NCBI GenBank assembly: GCA_000403295.2
Contig: KE159611.1
Location: 736,767-800,766 of the forward strand
Direction of reading: 5' to 3'
Source: Lachnospiraceae bacterium M18-1
GTDB lineage: Bacteria > Bacillota > Clostridia > Lachnospirales > Lachnospiraceae
DNA: 64,000 nucleotides
The notes beneath the pieces are model-generated. The model was not told where the DNA came from. It was given only the letters and a program-made list of their open reading frames with translations, and made no database searches. The position numbers and the translations under genes are program-made. Shown here in pieces: positions 4,889-52,534 of the stretch. Position 1 is the first letter of the stretch. Every line of letters starts with the position of its first letter.

Positions 4889-6721
4889 ATGAGCAGACTA
4901 GAAATCGCTTCGCCTAAGAGAGCAAGGATCGTCATGGAAGAGCTTTACAAGGATCTGGAGCGGAGAATCGAATCAAGCCCTCCGGGGCTGTGCCCGGTGG
5001 ATATGGCCAGGGCATTTCTGGAATTGTGCTATGCGCAGACCTGCGGAAAATGTACCCCCTGCCGGATCGGACTCGGGCAGCTGAACCAATTTATCAAAGA
5101 TGTGCTGGACGGCAATGCCACGATGGACACATTGGACATCATGGAACAGACCGCTCTTTCCATCATGGAATCCGCGGACTGCGCCATCGGTTATGAAGCC
5201 GCCAATATGGTATACAAGGGATTGATCGGCTACCGGGATGATTATGTGGGGCACATCCAGAACGGCCGATGCACCTGCACCTATAACCAGCCTGTTCCCT
5301 GCGTTTCCCTTTGTCCCGCACACGTAGACATCCCCGGCTACATTGCGCTGGTAGGCGAGGGAAGATACGCGGACGCGGTCCGGCTGATCCGAAAGGACAA
5401 TCCTTTCCCGGCCACCTGCGGCTTTATCTGCGAACACCCCTGCGAAGCAAGATGCCGCCGGAACATGATGGATGATTCCGTCAACATCCGCGGGCTGAAA
5501 CGGGTTGCTGCGGATTTTGCGGGAGAGGTGGAGCCGCCGCAATGTGCTCCTTCCACAGGAAAACGGATCGCCATCCTTGGCGGCGGTCCGGGCGGTTTAA
5601 GCGCTGCCTATTATCTGCAGCTCATGGGTCATCAGACCGTGATCTATGAAATGCTTCCCCAGCTGGGCGGTATGCTCCGTTACGGAATCCCCAACTACCG
5701 CCTTCCGAAAGACCGTCTGGACGAGGATATCCAAGCTATCTTGAAGACCGGGGCAGAGGTCCGGCACGGCTTGAAGATCGGACAGGATATCACGATCCAG
5801 CAGCTGCAGCAGGAATATGACGCGGTACTCATTACCATCGGAGCAAGCACAGACAAAAAGCTTGGTCTGGAGGGTGAGGATGCCGAAGGCGTATTATCCG
5901 CAGTCCAGTTCCTCCGGAATGTAGGAAGCAGCAAGATCATGGACCTGACCGGAAAGGAGGTAGCCGTGATCGGCGGAGGAAATGTCTCCATGGACGCGGT
6001 CCGCACTGCCAAGCGGCTGGGCGCAAAAAAAGTCAGCATTGTCTACCGGAGAAGAGTGGCGGATATGACGGCCCTTCCCGGCGAGATCGAAGGCGCAGTC
6101 GCAGAAGGCGTGGAGCTGCAGACCTTAAAGGCCCCCGCCTCTCTGGACATTGACAGCCAGAACCACATCAGGGGGATCTACGTAACGCCCCAGATGGTCA
6201 GCTCCATCAAAGGTGGACGCGCCGGCATCCGCCCCACCGGAGAACCGGATGTGTACATACCCTGCGACGTCCTGGTGGTCGCCATCGGCCAGAACATCGA
6301 GACCGGGCATTTCGAGGAAGCCGGAATCCCGGTAGAACGTGGAAAGATCGTGACCAAGAGTACGGGAGCCTTTGAGCATATGCCCGGCGTCTTTGCAGGC
6401 GGGGACTGTGCCAGCGGCCCGGCATCCGTGATCAAGGCCATCGCTGCCGCAAAAGTTGTTGCCGCGAATATCGATGAATACCTGGGCTTTCACCATCAGA
6501 TATCCTGCGATGTGGAAATCCCGGAAGCAAACCTTCAGGACCGGACGCCCTGCGGCCGCGTAAACCTTACAGAAAGGGAAGCCTGCGTTCGGAGCTGTGA
6601 TTTTGAGGGCGTGGAAAACTGCATGACAGAAACGGAAGCAAAGCAGGAGGCGTCCCGGTGTCTGCGGTGCGACCATTTCGGATATGGAATCTTCAAAGGA
6701 GGCAGAGAAAAAATATGGTAA
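4889..6721 (+). CDS. GltD-like FAD/NAD(P) oxidoreductase with NuoF-type Fe-S domain, hydrogenase partner
   Basis: 610 residues. Residues 40-105 match the C-terminal 4Fe-4S domain of NuoF (CGKCTPCRIG, C52/C55/C58, then C98), but the FMN/NADH domain of NuoF is absent. Residues 125-215 carry the cysteine-rich Fe-S region of GltD (CVSLCPAHVDIPGYI; CGFICEHPCEARCRR). A FAD-binding GGGPGGLSAAYYL follows near 230, an NAD(P) motif GGGNVSMDAVRTAKR near 362, and a C-terminal cysteine cluster (SRCLRCDHFGYG). By family knowledge such proteins pass electrons between NAD(P)H, flavin and Fe-S clusters. It overlaps the hydrogenase gene by 7 bp, so the two are translationally coupled and probably form one soluble complex. 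Which nicotinamide is used is not visible. Confidence 0.88.
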   Translation: MSRLEIASPKRARIVMEELYKDLERRIESSPPGLCPVDMARAFLELCYAQTCGKCTPCRIGLGQLNQFIKDVLDGNATMDTLDIMEQTALSIMESADCAIGYEAANMVYKGLIGYRDDYVGHIQNGRCTCTYNQPVPCVSLCPAHVDIPGYIALVGEGRYADAVRLIRKDNPFPATCGFICEHPCEARCRRNMMDDSVNIRGLKRVAADFAGEVEPPQCAPSTGKRIAILGGGPGGLSAAYYLQLMGHQTVIYEMLPQLGGMLRYGIPNYRLPKDRLDEDIQAILKTGAEVRHGLKIGQDITIQQLQQEYDAVLITIGASTDKKLGLEGEDAEGVLSAVQFLRNVGSSKIMDLTGKEVAVIGGGNVSMDAVRTAKRLGAKKVSIVYRRRVADMTALPGEIEGAVAEGVELQTLKAPASLDIDSQNHIRGIYVTPQMVSSIKGGRAGIRPTGEPDVYIPCDVLVVAIGQNIETGHFEEAGIPVERGKIVTKSTGAFEHMPGVFAGGDCASGPASVIKAIAAAKVVAANIDEYLGFHHQISCDVEIPEANLQDRTPCGRVNLTEREACVRSCDFEGVENCMTETEAKQEASRCLRCDHFGYGIFKGGREKIW

Positions 6722-44431: not shown

Positions 44432-44761
44432 TCATTTTTTCTCCTGTCTGTTTTGTTCCTGTATGTTTTCTCGTCTTTACTTTAATTTTTCCAGCCGTGC
44501 GGACGATCACATACAGTTTCGGCATTCACTTTCTTTCTGCCGGAATCTTATTATACAGACGGATAATTTGTTATACAAGTGCTGTAACAAAAATTCTTCT
44601 TGTAATGTTTTCCATTTATGTAATTGGTTCTCATACAGTTATCTATCCAGCCCCTCACCGAAGGCGATTAAAAATAGGCTGGATTATTACTGGAGCCCTT
44701 GCAGATGAGTATGAAGCCTACAGGCAAAGGACTAAATATTTTTCCATTCTAAAAGTCCCCC
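44432..44761. other. Intergenic; upstream region of surface protein plus a partial family I element
   Basis: No gene. At 44645-44688 ATCCAGCCCCTCACCGAAGGCG...AGGCTGGAT matches the central hairpin of family I elements, without the outer ends. It borders the ATPase remnant. Confidence 0.5.
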
Positions 44762-45636
44762 TTACTTCATTGATATGAGAACTTTTTTCAAATCAATGTA
44801 TGATTTATAAGCAGGCACGGTTCCTTTTAGGAAATCACTATCATATACCTCACTTTTCTTAATATCATTTCTTTTTAAAATACCAGATAAATTTTCTGCC
44901 GCAATTCCTCCAATATTTCTTACAATATAAATGCCATCATTTCTCTTAAATTCATCTAATATCTCTGAATAATGAGTTGAAAACACAAGGGTTGCCCCAT
45001 TTTTATTTACTTTTTTATCCATAAAAAAACGAACTAATGTCGACACAATTTCTTTATTAAAATGATTTCCTCTTTTTCATAGAATTTTAATCTGATATCA
45101 ACTTTTTTTCCTTCCGGTGTACAATATAAATATTCGATACTTGGATCCAAAAAAGTCAAAATCTCTTTCGGATACTTCCCTAAAACATTTAACATATTGT
45201 GATCCGTAAACTGAGACATATCACATAAAAAGAAGTTTGTACCCTGTTTTTTATTTAATGCTAATATAATACTAACATCTTCCAATAAATACTCTTCATT
45301 TTGATTTCTTCTCGTTCTTAATTCCGAGTCATTAAATACAAAAATGCCTTTCTTTGTTTTCACTTTATTAATCTCTTTTTCCCATAAATACTCCTCAGCA
45401 ATGACCAGCCTTCCACTTCCATCAACTTGATTAACCTTTTTTTCAATAACAGACTGCAGTTTATTTACAATGCCTTCATGATAAAAGTAAGTAGTAATAA
45501 CCACTTTTTGTTCCTCATTTAAATCATCAATATGCATGTAATGATCCAACAAAAGGATTCCAAACATGGTTACCAGATAATTACACAATAGCAGTCCATA
45601 TATGCCGTTATTTCCTGCGGAATGATATTTCTCCAC
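44762..45636 (-). pseudogene. Decayed AAA15/AbiLi-like ATPase, second copy
   Basis: Two minus-strand frames (45636-45034 and 45046-44762) are together homologous to the intact ATPase at 46510-47667, but diverged. The N-terminal 50-60 residues including Walker A are missing or scrambled (begins GNNGIYGLLLCNYL). At about 45060 the sequence jumps from FYEKEE directly to NHFNKEIVSTLVRFF, an out-of-frame deletion of about 42 codons that removes the signature and Walker B regions. The C-terminal part (GATLVFSTHYSEILDEF) remains. It is a non-functional relic of the same kind of module and is AT-rich like the intact copy. Confidence 0.85.
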
Positions 45637-45775
45637 CGATGTTTAAAAGTTGATACTGAAGAATTTTTACCTGCCAGACCTGGGCGATCAAGCCCTCACT
45701 AAGTCAACAGTAAGCTTTCTGTAATGCCTGCGCTTGATTTTCATTTGTTATATCTTAACTAAATAACATTGAGCC

Positions 45776-45902
45776 TCACATCCTCCGCTTCCATTCCATC
45801 ACCTTACAAAACACCACTGCCGCAACCGTACTCACCGCCGTCGCCGCGATCGCCGGTCCCACGATTGCCGTCGGATTCACGCTCCCGTACTGGCTCCGGT
45901 AC
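45776..45902 (-). pseudogene. Duplicated 3' end of spmA (42 codons)
   Basis: The minus strand encodes YRSQYGSVNPTAIVGPAIA... ending in a TGA at 45776-45778, matching the C-terminus of SpmA (47815-47938) at roughly four bases in five, with most protein residues kept. Upstream identity stops abruptly after CTGGCTCCGGTA. This is a displaced or foreign spmA 3' end, not part of a longer gene. Confidence 0.88.
45876..45901. repeat. 26-bp identical segment, distal copy (attachment-site-like)
   Basis: Identical over 26 bp to 47913-47938 and located exactly where spmA homology ends. The two copies bracket about 2.0 kb carrying the ATPase and TOPRIM-like genes. It could be the core of an integration site, or a strongly conserved coding stretch that marks a crossover. 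Confidence 0.6.
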
Positions 45903-45979
45903 GGTTGTGTCAAGCTAAGACTAAAAAATTTGATGGTTACATATTTTTTAACCAGTAGATGAGTAGGTTGAAAAATTTA

Positions 45980-46498
45980 TTATTTTTGTTTTAATAGATC
46001 CCATAAGGTCATTTCTTTTCTACGAATTTTTGATATCCGTCTATATTCATGCAACGCATTTATTAAGATATTTATATCAGAAAAATATTCATAAATAAAA
46101 TCATAACTTTTTACTTTGCTATATTTCAAAGCACGCTTACAATATGTACTTGGTTTCTCTCCTGAATTTTTAAAATCTTTGTATCTGTCTTCATTACATA
46201 TTATAAGCATTTCAATTTCAGGAGCTGTAACTACATTTATAACATCTACCTTCTTTTCATATGCTTTGCGTAGCTTAAAATTTTCATTTCTTGAATCTAA
46301 AATTCGATAAACTGTTATTTTTTCGGAAAAGCCTTTCTTTAGGTACTTTTCTTCAAAATCTCTTCCTCGTCGGCATTTTAACACTTCTTCTTCAATTAGA
46401 TCTTCTCTCTCAAAAACTAAGCTATGGTTGTCCAGTAATAAATCTAATATCGCGTGTTCGGCACCGCCTTCGCATATACATGCTAAATATTTTGCCAT
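45980..46498 (-). CDS. TOPRIM/RloB-like protein paired with an AAA ATPase
   Basis: 172 residues with AGGAGG before the ATG. The N-terminal LACICEGGAEHAILDLLL carries a TOPRIM-like E-G-x-x-E pattern, followed by YRILDSRNENF and VVTAPEIEMLIICN, which could supply the later acidic residues. This size and order next to an ATPase resembles AbiLii or RloB proteins of phage-defence pairs. The family match is by eye only. It is 11 bp downstream of the ATPase gene in the same operon. GC content is clearly lower than that of spmA and neighbours, a sign of transfer. Confidence 0.65.
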   Translation of the reverse strand: MAKYLACICEGGAEHAILDLLLDNHSLVFEREDLIEEEVLKCRRGRDFEEKYLKKGFSEKITVYRILDSRNENFKLRKAYEKKVDVINVVTAPEIEMLIICNEDRYKDFKNSGEKPSTYCKRALKYSKVKSYDFIYEYFSDINILINALHEYRRISKIRRKEMTLWDLLKQK

Positions 46499-46509
46499 TT
46501 TAAAGCCTC

Positions 46510-47667
46510 CTATCTTAATGATATTAGCGCTTTTTTCAGAGCAATATAAGATTCATAAGCAGGTACGGTTCCCTCAAGAAAATCACTATCGTATATCTCA
46601 CTTTTTTTAATATCATTTCTTTTCAAAATACCAGAAAGTTTTTCGGCAGTAATCCCATCTTTGTTTTTTGTAATATAAATACTGTCGTTCCTTTCAAATT
46701 CATCTAGCAATTCTGAATAATGAGTTGAAAAAATCAGAGTTGCCCCTTTTTTATTGACTTTTTTATCCATGAAAAATCGTATTAATGTTGAAACAATTTC
46801 TTTGTTAAAATGATTTTCTAATTCATCTACAATCAAATATCCCCCTTCCAAAAATGAAAATACTGCCCCCATAAATACACTCAGACCTTTTATTGTACCT
46901 GAAGAAAGATATCTGTTAAGTGCTAACGGACTATTTAACGTTAGCTCTTCTTTTTCATAAAATTTCAATCTGATATCAACTTTTTTTTCAGTTGGTTCAC
47001 AGCTAAGGGTTTCGATGCTAGGATCCAAAAAAGTTAATATTTCTTTCGGATACTGGCCTAAAAAATTCAACATATTATGATCTGTGAAATCTGACATATC
47101 ATATAAGGAAAAATTCGTGTCTTGTTCTTTATTTAAAGCAACTATAATACTAACATCTTCTATTAGATACTGTTCATTTTTATTTCTTCGGATTTTTACT
47201 TGGGCATCATTAAAATCATAAAGTCTTTTTTTCGTTTTTATCTTATGAATTTCTTTTTCCCATAATGTTTCATCTATAATTACAAATTTTGTATTGCCAT
47301 CAATAGCATTTCTTTTTCTTCCTACTATTGTTTCCAATTTATATACAATGCCATTATGATAAAAATAAGCAGTAAAAATCATATTTTGTTTACTATCTAA
47401 GTCGTCCAAAAATTTTTTAGAGGAAATACTATTAATAGGTTCATTATTTAATAATCCTATAGCAAAAGAAATCAATTTTAGGATTGTTGTCTTACCAGAT
47501 GCATTAATCCCAATAAAAGATAATGTTGGACTTGTATAAACATTAGAAAACACATTGAACATTTGTTCTCTGGCATCATTGTCTACTCTTTGTTGTGCAA
47601 CGAAGTCCACATCTAAAGTATTTTTTAAATTTTGTAAACCTTTTATGGATAGTTTTAAGATTTTCAT
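46510..47667 (-). CDS. AAA15-family ATPase (AbiLi/RloA-like), intact copy
   Basis: 385 residues. Walker A GINASGKTT (53-61), an ABC-like signature region LSSGTIKGLSVF, Walker B GGYLIVDELENHF and switch histidine in GATLIFSTHYSELLDEF; these are the features of COG1106-type ATPases. Members pair with a TOPRIM or RloB-type effector in abortive-infection and other defence operons. No membrane segment. AT-rich. A decayed paralogue lies 0.9 kb downstream. Confidence 0.82.
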   Translation of the reverse strand: MKILKLSIKGLQNLKNTLDVDFVAQQRVDNDAREQMFNVFSNVYTSPTLSFIGINASGKTTILKLISFAIGLLNNEPINSISSKKFLDDLDSKQNMIFTAYFYHNGIVYKLETIVGRKRNAIDGNTKFVIIDETLWEKEIHKIKTKKRLYDFNDAQVKIRRNKNEQYLIEDVSIIVALNKEQDTNFSLYDMSDFTDHNMLNFLGQYPKEILTFLDPSIETLSCEPTEKKVDIRLKFYEKEELTLNSPLALNRYLSSGTIKGLSVFMGAVFSFLEGGYLIVDELENHFNKEIVSTLIRFFMDKKVNKKGATLIFSTHYSELLDEFERNDSIYITKNKDGITAEKLSGILKRNDIKKSEIYDSDFLEGTVPAYESYIALKKALISLR

Positions 47668-47812
47668 GTCCTTCCCCTTTTTTCCACGTTATTTACGTTT
47701 TTATTATGTTATTATATATACTTTTTTGTGTTATTTCAACTATTATTTCCGATATTTTTGTAATTATACTGATTTCCTATAAAGGGGAATTTTTTAAAGA
47801 AAGCAGGGAATT

Positions 47813-48427
47813 CTACGTTCCCCGCTTCCTATCCATCACCTTGCAATACACCACCGCCACCAATGTACTCACCGCCGTAGCCGCAATTCCCGGCCCCACA
47901 ATCACCGCCGGGTTCACGCTCCCGTACTGGCTCCGGTAAGCAATCACATTCACCGGAATCAACTGTAAGGAGGAAATATTGATAATCAAAAACGTACACA
48001 TCTCATTACTGGCAATTCCCTTCTTTCTCACCGGTCCCGGAAGTCTACCCCGCCTCCTGTCGTCCTCCAGCTTTGATAGCTCTTCCATCGCCCGTAATCC
48101 CGCCGGGGTAGCCGCCCACCCCAGCCCCAGGAAATTAGAGATAAAATTCACTGCAATATGCTCCTTCGCCGGATGTCCCTCCGGAATCCCGGGAAATAAA
48201 AACTTCAGCAGCGGCCCCATTTTCTTAGACGCAAGCTCGATCACTCCCGCCTTAGTCGCAATCTCCATCATGCCAACCCAAAAGGACATCACTCCCATCA
48301 TCGTAATACAAAGCGTCACAGCCTCCTTCGCGGAATCCAGCGCCTCCTTGGTAACCTCCGGCATCTTCCCGTTAAACGCGCCGAAAATAATCCCGACAAT
48401 GATCATACCAGCCCAAAGATAATTCAT
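47813..48427 (-). CDS. spmA: Spore maturation protein A
   Basis: 204 residues from the ATG at 48427, behind GGGAGGGG; 13 bp after the DUF885 gene. Nucleoside-recognition (Gate) fold: NYLWAGMIIVGIIFGAFNG, SFWVGMMEIATKAGVIELASKKMGPLLKFLFPGIPEG and NFISNFLGLGWAATPAGLRAMEEL are characteristic. With SpmB it is needed for dehydration of the spore core. The last about 100 bp may come from an incoming module, since a second, different spmA 3' end lies 2.0 kb downstream. spmB is separated and on the other strand. Confidence 0.93.
   Translation of the reverse strand: MNYLWAGMIIVGIIFGAFNGKMPEVTKEALDSAKEAVTLCITMMGVMSFWVGMMEIATKAGVIELASKKMGPLLKFLFPGIPEGHPAKEHIAVNFISNFLGLGWAATPAGLRAMEELSKLEDDRRRGRLPGPVRKKGIASNEMCTFLIINISSLQLIPVNVIAYRSQYGSVNPAVIVGPGIAATAVSTLVAVVYCKVMDRKRGT
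47913..47938. repeat. 26-bp identical segment, proximal copy inside spmA
   Basis: Lies within spmA, about 100 bp from its stop; twin of 45876-45901. Beyond its right edge the two sequences have nothing in common, which fixes this as the edge of the duplication. Confidence 0.6.
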
Positions 48428-51159: not shown

Positions 51160-52459
51160 TTATCTTGCATACACGTTTACATAGATTCTTGGCGTTGCTA
51201 ATGGATGTACCTTTAGCATGTCATTGAATCCTTCCCAGTTATAGCTTTTCTTCTGGCTTCTGCGATTCAGCCATTTAAACAGGCTTTTCATCATCTGATA
51301 CCGGAAGTTGCTCAAACTCTGGATGTTGTCCGTGATTCCGTAGTAATGGTAGTAACCTACAAGTATCTCATTCAGTTTCTTTATTATGGCTTTTAGAGGT
51401 TTTGTCCTCATATCCCGAATCAGACGGTGTACTTCTTTGCATTTCTTTGTAAATTTCTTCCTGCTGGTTTTCCTCTTCACCCGGAATTTACCGTTCCTGC
51501 CATGAGAACAGTAATGTGTAAAACCCAGAAATGTGAAGGTTTCCGGCTTCCTGCCCTTCCTTGCGCATCTTTCCTGTGCATATCTGCCAAACTCTATGAG
51601 CCTGCTCTTGCTTTCCTCCAGGGTCATTCCGAAGTGTCCCATCCTACCTTTCAGATGTTTATAGAATTCTTCCGCTTCTTCCTTATATTGGAAGCATGCC
51701 ACAAAATCGTCAGCGTAAACCACCAGTCCCCCATATCCTTTCAGCTTCGGCTCTACACATTCCTTGAACCACCATACCAGGACGTAGTGCATATAGATAT
51801 TCGATATCACGGGGGGAACAGACCGAACCCTGTTCAGAACCCTCTTCTGTTTCCTCGTATTGGTAGTTCTCTATGATTCCTGCTTTCAGCATCCGCCTTA
51901 CCAGTCTTATGATATTGGGGTCTTTGATTCGTGATTCTATAAATCTGATTGCCCATTCATGGTCTATATGGTTGAAAAAGCTCTTGATATCTGCATCCAG
52001 AACATAGTTCGTCGGCCGCATTTCCAGCATCACATTTAATTTCCGGATTGCCTGATGACATCCTCTCTTTGGGCGGAATCCCATCATTTCGTCATAGAAA
52101 TGGGGCTCGAATACCGCCTCCAGTATCCGCCTTAATGCTTCCTGTACCAACTTATCTTCATAGCAATAGATGCTTAGCGGTCTGGTCTTTCCGTTTTCCT
52201 TTGGTATTTCCACAAGCCTTGCCGGCTGTGGCTTATACGATTTCTTCTTCAGCCGTTCCACCAGTCTCTCAAGATTTTCTTCCAGATTCCGGCTGTATTC
52301 CTCTTTGGTAACCCCATCGATTCCTACCGCCTTATCTCCATCCATTTTTACATGACAATCTTTTAACAGCTCTTTGTCAATCAGATGTCCGATGGACGTA
52401 AATACCATGTCCGGATTTTCGCTTGACAGTTGTGATATTCTCGCCAATTTCGTTTCCAT
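51160..52459 (-). pseudogene. Group II intron reverse transcriptase/maturase, +1 frameshift
   Basis: Starts at the ATG at 52459 behind AGGAGG. The first frame holds RT blocks 0-4 (KAVGIDGVTKEEY; IPKENGKTRPLSI; GFRPKRGCHQAIRKLN; DADIKSFFNHIDHEW) and runs into QGSVCSPR. The second resumes at VISNIYMHYVL and carries YADDFVACF and the maturase X domain. The break is at a run of six G on the plus strand (51811-51816); five would restore one frame. No endonuclease domain is present after X. It could be a real mutation, a sequencing error at a homopolymer, or slippage. Confidence 0.9.
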
Positions 52460-52534
52460 TGTTCCTCCTATCTCTGGGTATAGACAATGTTTCCTCTTTG
52501 ATATGGTTTTGCATAGCAGGGATGTGAGGCACAT

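What the first reader, a model, noticed from the sequence alone, without database searches (positions are those of the whole stretch)
44762..48427. Stacked ATPase/TOPRIM modules on duplicated spmA 3' ends with an identical 26-bp boundary
Seen: going leftward, intact spmA, ATPase, TOPRIM-like gene, then a second and different spmA 3' end with its own stop codon (45776-45902), then a decayed ATPase copy. The two spmA ends are about 80 percent identical, keep the protein sequence, and share a perfect 26-bp segment (47913-47938 and 45876-45901) exactly at the point where homology stops. The gene pair is AT-rich. Inference: each module carries its own replacement of the spmA C-terminus and enters at that segment, pushing the older end and older module downstream, so spmA stays intact. 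This would make a sporulation gene 3' end an integration site for small two-gene defence cassettes without a visible recombinase.
Basis: partly seen in the sequence, partly recalled or inferred. Interest (0 to 1): 0.86.

Follow-up and report, generated by a model that had tools for sequence, protein, structure and literature searches.

The report
Defence-gene cassettes stacked at spmA
In gut Lachnospiraceae, small swappable DNA cassettes carrying anti-phage-type genes sit at one fixed spot near the end of a sporulation gene, each bringing a replacement gene end so that the gene stays whole; this suggests a way for bacteria to trade immune genes between species.

Summary
The window's spmA carries a replacement 3' end (codons 164-204), then an AbiL-like ATPase and a TOPRIM-like gene; an older spmA end lies 2,037 bp downstream. 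With 8 of 80 spmA loci, nine arrays hold 1-4 extra spmA ends, sharing one edge at codon 164 and directly preceded by one near-invariant 27-bp end motif, R. R, not the 26-mer (mostly conserved coding sequence), is the hallmark. The window's cassette is 99.2-99.4% identical in three genomes whose upstream spmA is only 70-73% identical, at different array positions. Eight of nine cargo types match PADLOC defence models (one by similarity only). R variants also end cassettes at an S8-protease gene with the same gene-restoring layout, abut several other genes, and lie near tandem triplets of large serine recombinases (3 of 7 triplet loci found by recombinase similarity, plus two found through R). 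Best reading: recombinase-less cassettes moved in trans by a serine-integrase-triplet family, resembling SCC and Dehalococcoides ssrA islands but compact and at protein-coding gene ends. The spmA-specific helper and excised circles were not found or could not be tested; homologous recombination also reshapes the first spmA end.

The parts
47939..48427 (-). spmA codons 1-163, the resident part (X) of the target gene
   Evidence: 70-79% identical to the hosts of near-identical cassettes; 85.7% to nearest relative L024
47813..47938 (-). live spmA 3' end (Y'), codons 164-204 and stop, brought by the cassette; nt 61-123 identical to the internal cassette copy L018.3, nt 1-60 85% to it
46510..47667 (-). 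AbiL-like ATPase, 385 aa (Pfam AAA_21; PADLOC AbiLi 1.5e-32)
45980..46498 (-). [not shown]
45902..45928 (-). 27-bp cassette end R (TTTTTTAGTCTTAGCTTGACACAACCG on the minus strand)
45776..45901 (-). displaced older spmA 3' end (Y), codons 164-204 and stop
44758..45529 (-). decayed second ATPase copy of an older unit (75-79% nt identity to the intact one)
44732..44753 (-). short match (91% of 22 nt) to the start of the TOPRIM-like gene, possible remnant of the older unit's partner gene
   Evidence: family D12; short two-copy families can be chance

Best explanation
The window holds one intact and one decayed unit of a modular array of site-specifically integrating cassettes. A cassette is [target-gene 3' end Y'] - cargo - [27-bp end R]. 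Shown: units are near-identical in distantly related hosts, in different orders, with a fixed left edge (spmA codon 164) and right edge (end of R); each unit supplies an spmA end; R-type ends also delimit cassettes at other genes, and some lie beside tandem triplets of large serine recombinases. Inferred: a serine-integrase triplet not encoded in the cassettes recombines the intact-gene site X|Y with the R|Y' junction of a circular cassette, giving X|Y'-cargo-R|Y, so that spmA stays whole and older units move downstream. The reverse reaction between X|Y' and any downstream R|Y would excise a circle holding whatever lies between, which would explain capture of new cargo. Inferred: the cargo (ATPase plus TOPRIM-like protein) is an OLD/AbiL-like anti-phage system.
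For: 16 R|Y junctions in 9 arrays with R column identity 0.98 against 0.55 further upstream; reversed-pattern control 0. Cassette 99.2-99.4% identical over 2.04 kb in hosts with 70-73% identical upstream spmA, at positions 1, 1, 3 and 3 of the arrays. L003.1 (after host spmA) and L018.3 (after an R) are identical from nt 1 to 254. The HipA/HIRAN-like unit keeps its right edge exactly at the end of R in spmA (L004) and beside an integrase gene (G005). Window displaced end is nearer L024's native end. Same gene-restoring layout at an S8-protease gene. R near serine-recombinase triplets: L122, L125, L130, L132, L164; recombinase remnants behind R in G311. Published serine-recombinase systems with this logic: PMC3146451, PMC6222049 (passages).
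Against: No recombinase in or near the spmA arrays and no triplet with exactly the spmA-type R was found in 12 + 6 + 397 genomes searched. Two of the five triplet loci with R were found through R itself; of seven found by recombinase similarity, four show no R in the stretch held. Triplet elements known in Streptococcus disrupt their targets rather than restore them. Some first-position ends are chimeric, which homologous recombination would also give. The displaced-end test fails for L016 vs L015. No excised circle was tested, and the half-site size argument is recalled.
Confidence: 0.7

Rival explanations
1. One ancestral R|spmA junction, then spread and reshuffling by ordinary homologous recombination between the ~125-bp spmA ends (and flanking spmA), with no site-specific enzyme acting on these arrays today.
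For: Chimeric first-position ends: window nt 27-60 (9 mismatches to every other copy, then 0.2-0.4%), L016.1 vs L018.1 18 mismatches in nt 15-103. No recombinase in the arrays. The same NsnABC-like cargo occurs with codon-164 ends (L011) and codon-107 ends (L012) at 91.1%.
Against: L003.1 keeps the cassette's own end from nt 1. Unrelated cargo types all end in the same R. R variants delimit cassettes at S8, parB and other genes. A cassette with an exact R end sits beside a non-spmA gene in G005.
Confidence: 0.2
2. Integron-like: a tyrosine recombinase acting in trans recombines R as an attC-like site.
For: Array logic resembles integrons: 33 of 34 cargo ORFs of at least 120 aa are co-oriented with spmA, one fixed entry site, shuffled cassettes.
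Against: The R-adjacent recombinases are serine recombinases (Pfam for L122; by sequence similarity and ORF reading for the others). The tyrosine integrases seen beside R are target genes (L119; L125 and L132, read by eye). R has no tested attC-like fold.
Confidence: 0.03
3. Plain tandem duplication of spmA end plus module inside one lineage, inherited vertically.
For: The two ATPase copies in the window are related (75-79%).
Against: 99.3% cassette vs 70.1% host gene identity between window and L003, and different neighbours and order in other genomes.
Confidence: 0.01

Closest known systems
Dehalococcoides ssrA genomic islands (PMC3146451; passages read)
   Same: Tandem islands behind one gene, each boundary a repeat of the gene's 3' end; a conserved 15-bp motif adjacent upstream of each repeat; CcrB-like serine recombinase; some islands lack the integration module
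   Different: Target is tmRNA with a 20-bp repeat; sixteen of the islands carry an integration module and their cargo includes dehalogenases; here 41 (spmA) or 39 (S8) codons of protein-coding gene, 1.3-4.9 kb units, mostly defence-type cargo, no recombinase inside
SCC and Enterococcus cassette chromosome (PMC6222049; passages read)
   Same: Large serine recombinases insert islands at the 3' region of a conserved gene (rlmH), leaving the gene intact (rlmH intactness recalled); variable cargo; composite elements
   Different: ECC carries ccrAB and is over 20 kb; att repeats of about 50 bp; here units are recombinase-less, a few kb, and bring ~125 bp of coding end
ICEs with triplets of serine integrases (PMC4701971; passages read)
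   Same: Three tandem serine recombinases in one orientation; short direct repeats; several target genes including traG
   Different: Integration disrupts the target gene; elements are autonomous conjugative elements; no gene-restoring end described in the passages seen
CIMEs and tandem accretion (PMC5704250; passages read)
   Same: Elements without integration and transfer genes that keep attL and attR and stack in tandem behind a resident gene end
   Different: Described as decayed ICE/IME remnants; here near-identical compact units circulate between species
gin element in gerE of Bacillus cereus (PMC5595907; passages read)
   Same: Serine-recombinase element (three recombinase genes) in a sporulation gene
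   Different: Splits gerE and excises during sporulation; here spmA is never split
AbiL / OLD-type ATPase plus TOPRIM systems
   Same: ATPase matches PADLOC AbiLi at 1.5e-32; partner model is nearest to PH0156 and to OLD TOPRIM domains
   Different: Partner matches no PADLOC model at E<=0.01; defence not tested

Membership tests
SCC-like / ssrA-GI-like serine-recombinase islands at a gene 3' end | Unit bounded by the target gene's 3' end and a repeat of it, at one fixed edge | tested here: met
   16 junctions in 9 arrays
SCC-like / ssrA-GI-like serine-recombinase islands at a gene 3' end | Target gene restored by the incoming 3' end | tested here: met
   Live spmA ends are open in all 9 arrays; pN/pS 0.195
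SCC-like / ssrA-GI-like serine-recombinase islands at a gene 3' end | Serine recombinase encoded in at least some elements with the same ends | tested here: inconclusive
   R variants lie beside serine-recombinase triplets, but none with exactly the spmA-type R was found and none lies in the 80 spmA loci
SCC-like / ssrA-GI-like serine-recombinase islands at a gene 3' end | Recombinase-dependent excision as a circle | not testable with these tools
   needs reads or experiments
CIME (cis-mobilizable element) | No integration or transfer genes but both ends kept | tested here: met
   No serine recombinase by tblastn at E<=1e-8; no integrase or transfer gene seen in the ORF lists (part of the output was cut)
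Integron gene cassette | attC site and IntI tyrosine integrase | not tested
   No IntI or attC search was run
AbiL system | AbiLi ATPase | tested here: met
   PDLC02335 E 1.5e-32
AbiL system | AbiLii partner | tested here: inconclusive
   No PADLOC match at E<=0.01; TOPRIM-like fold only weakly supported

The most novel reading that the evidence does not exclude
A recombinase-in-trans cassette platform of gut Clostridia, functionally parallel to integrons but built on large-serine-integrase triplets: a 27-bp half-site plus a target gene's own 3' end make any intervening DNA a portable, gene-restoring cassette, and conserved genes (spmA at three separate codons, an S8 protease) serve as docking ports where defence systems (or, at S8, other genes) are captured, stacked and traded between species.
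Probability: 0.45. Interest if true: 0.9.

Novelty: new variant of a known kind. Interest (0 to 1): 0.8.

Why it matters
It gives exact edges for small defence systems that often have none, names a sporulation gene as a docking port, and links the ends to a recombinase family, so that mobilisation in trans can be tested directly. Scanning for R plus a gene end could list cassettes across Firmicutes by position rather than by homology, including unknown systems. It also shows how a host gene can take repeated insertions without being lost.
Full report
OBSERVATION. The features are at the stated coordinates. On the minus strand: spmA 48427-47813, ATPase 47667-46510, TOPRIM-like 46498-45980, a 27-bp motif 45928-45902, a second spmA end 45901-45776 (codons 164-204 and stop), and a decayed ATPase 45529-44758. 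The 26-bp identity is exact and unique in the window.

THE EDGE IS SHARED BY OTHER GENOMES. L006's tblastn match began at codon 162 and was read from the shared edge; L011's second end is truncated after 14 codons; L002's has a stop at its fifth codon. With the window that makes 16 junctions. They share the 27 bp before the spmA end, with column identity 0.98 over -27..-1 against 0.55 further upstream. I call it R. A degenerate R pattern hits 16 times in 1.38 Mb of these 80 loci: 15 before codon 164 and one (L002) before codon ~97; the reversed pattern hits 0 times. In genus samples R is present in 7 of 12 (one of them, G411, not at a recognisable spmA end) and 3 of 6 genomes. In a 397-genome family sample 6 genomes have R within two mismatches, other target genes included. 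The 26-mer itself is conserved coding sequence: exact in 3 of 69 array-less and 4 of 8 array-bearing spmA genes (3 of 80 genes with gapped alignments were dropped).

CASSETTES MOVE BETWEEN SPECIES. The window's 2,037-bp unit is 99.3, 99.4 and 99.2% identical to L003.1, L016.3 and L018.3, while spmA codons 1-163 of the window are 70.1, 71.0 and 72.8% identical to those hosts. The unit is first in the window and L003, third in L016 and L018. L003.3 and L016.2 are 99.4% identical over 1,984 bp. A HipA/HIRAN-like unit (PADLOC PDC-M03A/B) at spmA in L004 is 99.2% identical over 1,096 bp to a copy at a contig start in G005 whose R abuts a tyrosine-integrase gene in antisense. Mismatch maps: L003.1 and L018.3 are identical for the first 254 nt although one follows host spmA and the other an R, so exchange was at the edge. 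The window's Y' has the same 9 mismatches in nt 27-60 to each other copy and then 0.2-0.4%, and L016.1 vs L018.1 has 18 in nt 15-103, so some first-position ends were partly replaced by other, presumably host, sequence.

DISPLACED ENDS AND EMPTY-TYPE SITES. The window's nearest relative among the 80 loci is L024 (85.8% over 7.7 kb of flank). L024's native spmA end is 89.4% identical to the window's displaced end and 83.7% to the live end, a difference of 7 of 123 nt; nt 61-123 of the live end are identical to the internal cassette copy L018.3. The same test with L016 and L015 gave no support: L015's native end is nearest to L016's fourth end (82.1%), not to its last (76.4%). L019 has one spmA end, and the flank after the last end in L002 continues collinearly with it (74% over 3.0 kb); in L008 the same flank (77% over 1.9 kb) starts about 1.1 kb after the last end. 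Live ends have pN/pS 0.195 (36 pairs) and displaced ends 0.250 (105 pairs; L011's truncated end dropped).

OTHER TARGETS, SAME ENDS. An R variant precedes spmA from codon ~97 in L002 and G361; another precedes codon ~107 in L012 and L060 (a further copy in L060 is followed by other sequence) and a residual spmA end in L048. In G176 and G311 ten R copies precede an S8-protease C-terminus; 7 of the 10 keep a 39-codon frame ending in a stop at the same place, and an S8 gene with that C-terminus heads the G176 array (its 5' part was not examined). Cargo there is not mainly defence (ORFs read by eye). A parB-type array in G188 and G006 has non-coding left ends. Further R variants abut aldo/keto-reductase-like genes (recognised by eye) and tyrosine-integrase-like genes (by eye).

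RECOMBINASE LINK. The only viral contig with a degenerate R match, L122, encodes three tandem large serine recombinases (Pfam Resolvase plus Recombinase); the third ends at 5381 and the R core starts at 5388. Seven further recombinase loci were found by similarity to its third recombinase (L123-L125, L130-L133). Three of these seven have an R-type end downstream: L125 and L132 within about 100 bp, and L130 1.25 kb beyond, after a 363-aa ORF; L123, L124, L131 and L133 show none in the stretch held. L164 was found through its R. At up to 2 mismatches the loose R pattern has background (46 matches vs 10 for the reversed control in 13 genomes). Recombinase remnants sit behind R|Y' in three G311 units, and a recombinase-like piece without a Pfam match behind the parB end in G188. 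No serine recombinase was found in the 80 spmA loci or the window (tblastn E<=1e-8). Published triplet ICEs disrupt mutT, traG and hsdM (PMC4701971, passages).

MECHANISM. R is about the length of a large-serine-recombinase half-site, and the start of Y sits where the other half-site would be (sizes recalled). I infer X|Y x R|Y' -> X|Y'-cargo-R|Y, as in SCC (PMC6222049, passages) and Dehalococcoides ssrA islands, where a conserved motif also precedes each gene-end repeat (PMC3146451, passages). Recombination between X|Y' and a downstream R|Y would excise whatever lies between, a simple way to make new cassettes. Homologous recombination acts in addition. Stacking of integrase-less elements behind a gene end is known as accretion of CIMEs (PMC5704250, passages).

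VERDICT. What is new is the compact, recombinase-free, gene-restoring cassette form at protein-coding ends, its defence-type cargo, and an end motif that ties it to serine-integrase triplets. The enzyme acting at spmA and the excised circle remain to be shown.

Noticed in passing
L111, L112 (G176:C21) and L113-L116 (G311): Arrays of the same architecture at an S8-protease gene, with cargo that by eye is not mainly defence (regulatory, membrane, metabolic genes).
   Followed up: partly
L117 (G188:C6), L120 (G006:C150): R-ended units next to a ParB-like gene end, carrying a zeta-toxin-like gene and a TOTE-primase/helicase protein; left ends are non-coding.
   Followed up: partly
L119 (G005:C2:1323-1346): Cassette end abuts a tyrosine-integrase gene in antisense; the adjoining TACC-N8-TACGG also occurs at the spmA site, so it may be a secondary site (contig starts inside the cassette).
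   Followed up: partly
L018:15995-17434: A transposase-like gene (by eye) inside a spmA unit, the only minus-strand ORF of 120 aa or more among the units.
   Followed up: no
L074:10916-12033: DUF1016-like gene directly behind spmA, followed at once by a spmA fragment from codon 183, without an R motif.
   Followed up: no
window 51160-52534: Two overlapping minus-strand ORFs that read by eye as a frameshifted group II intron reverse transcriptase.
   Followed up: no
L122:54-296, L125:1462-1710: A small DUF6870-type ORF sits just before the serine-recombinase triplet (Pfam for L122; L125 by eye); DUF6870 matches also occur behind R in G311 units.
   Followed up: partly
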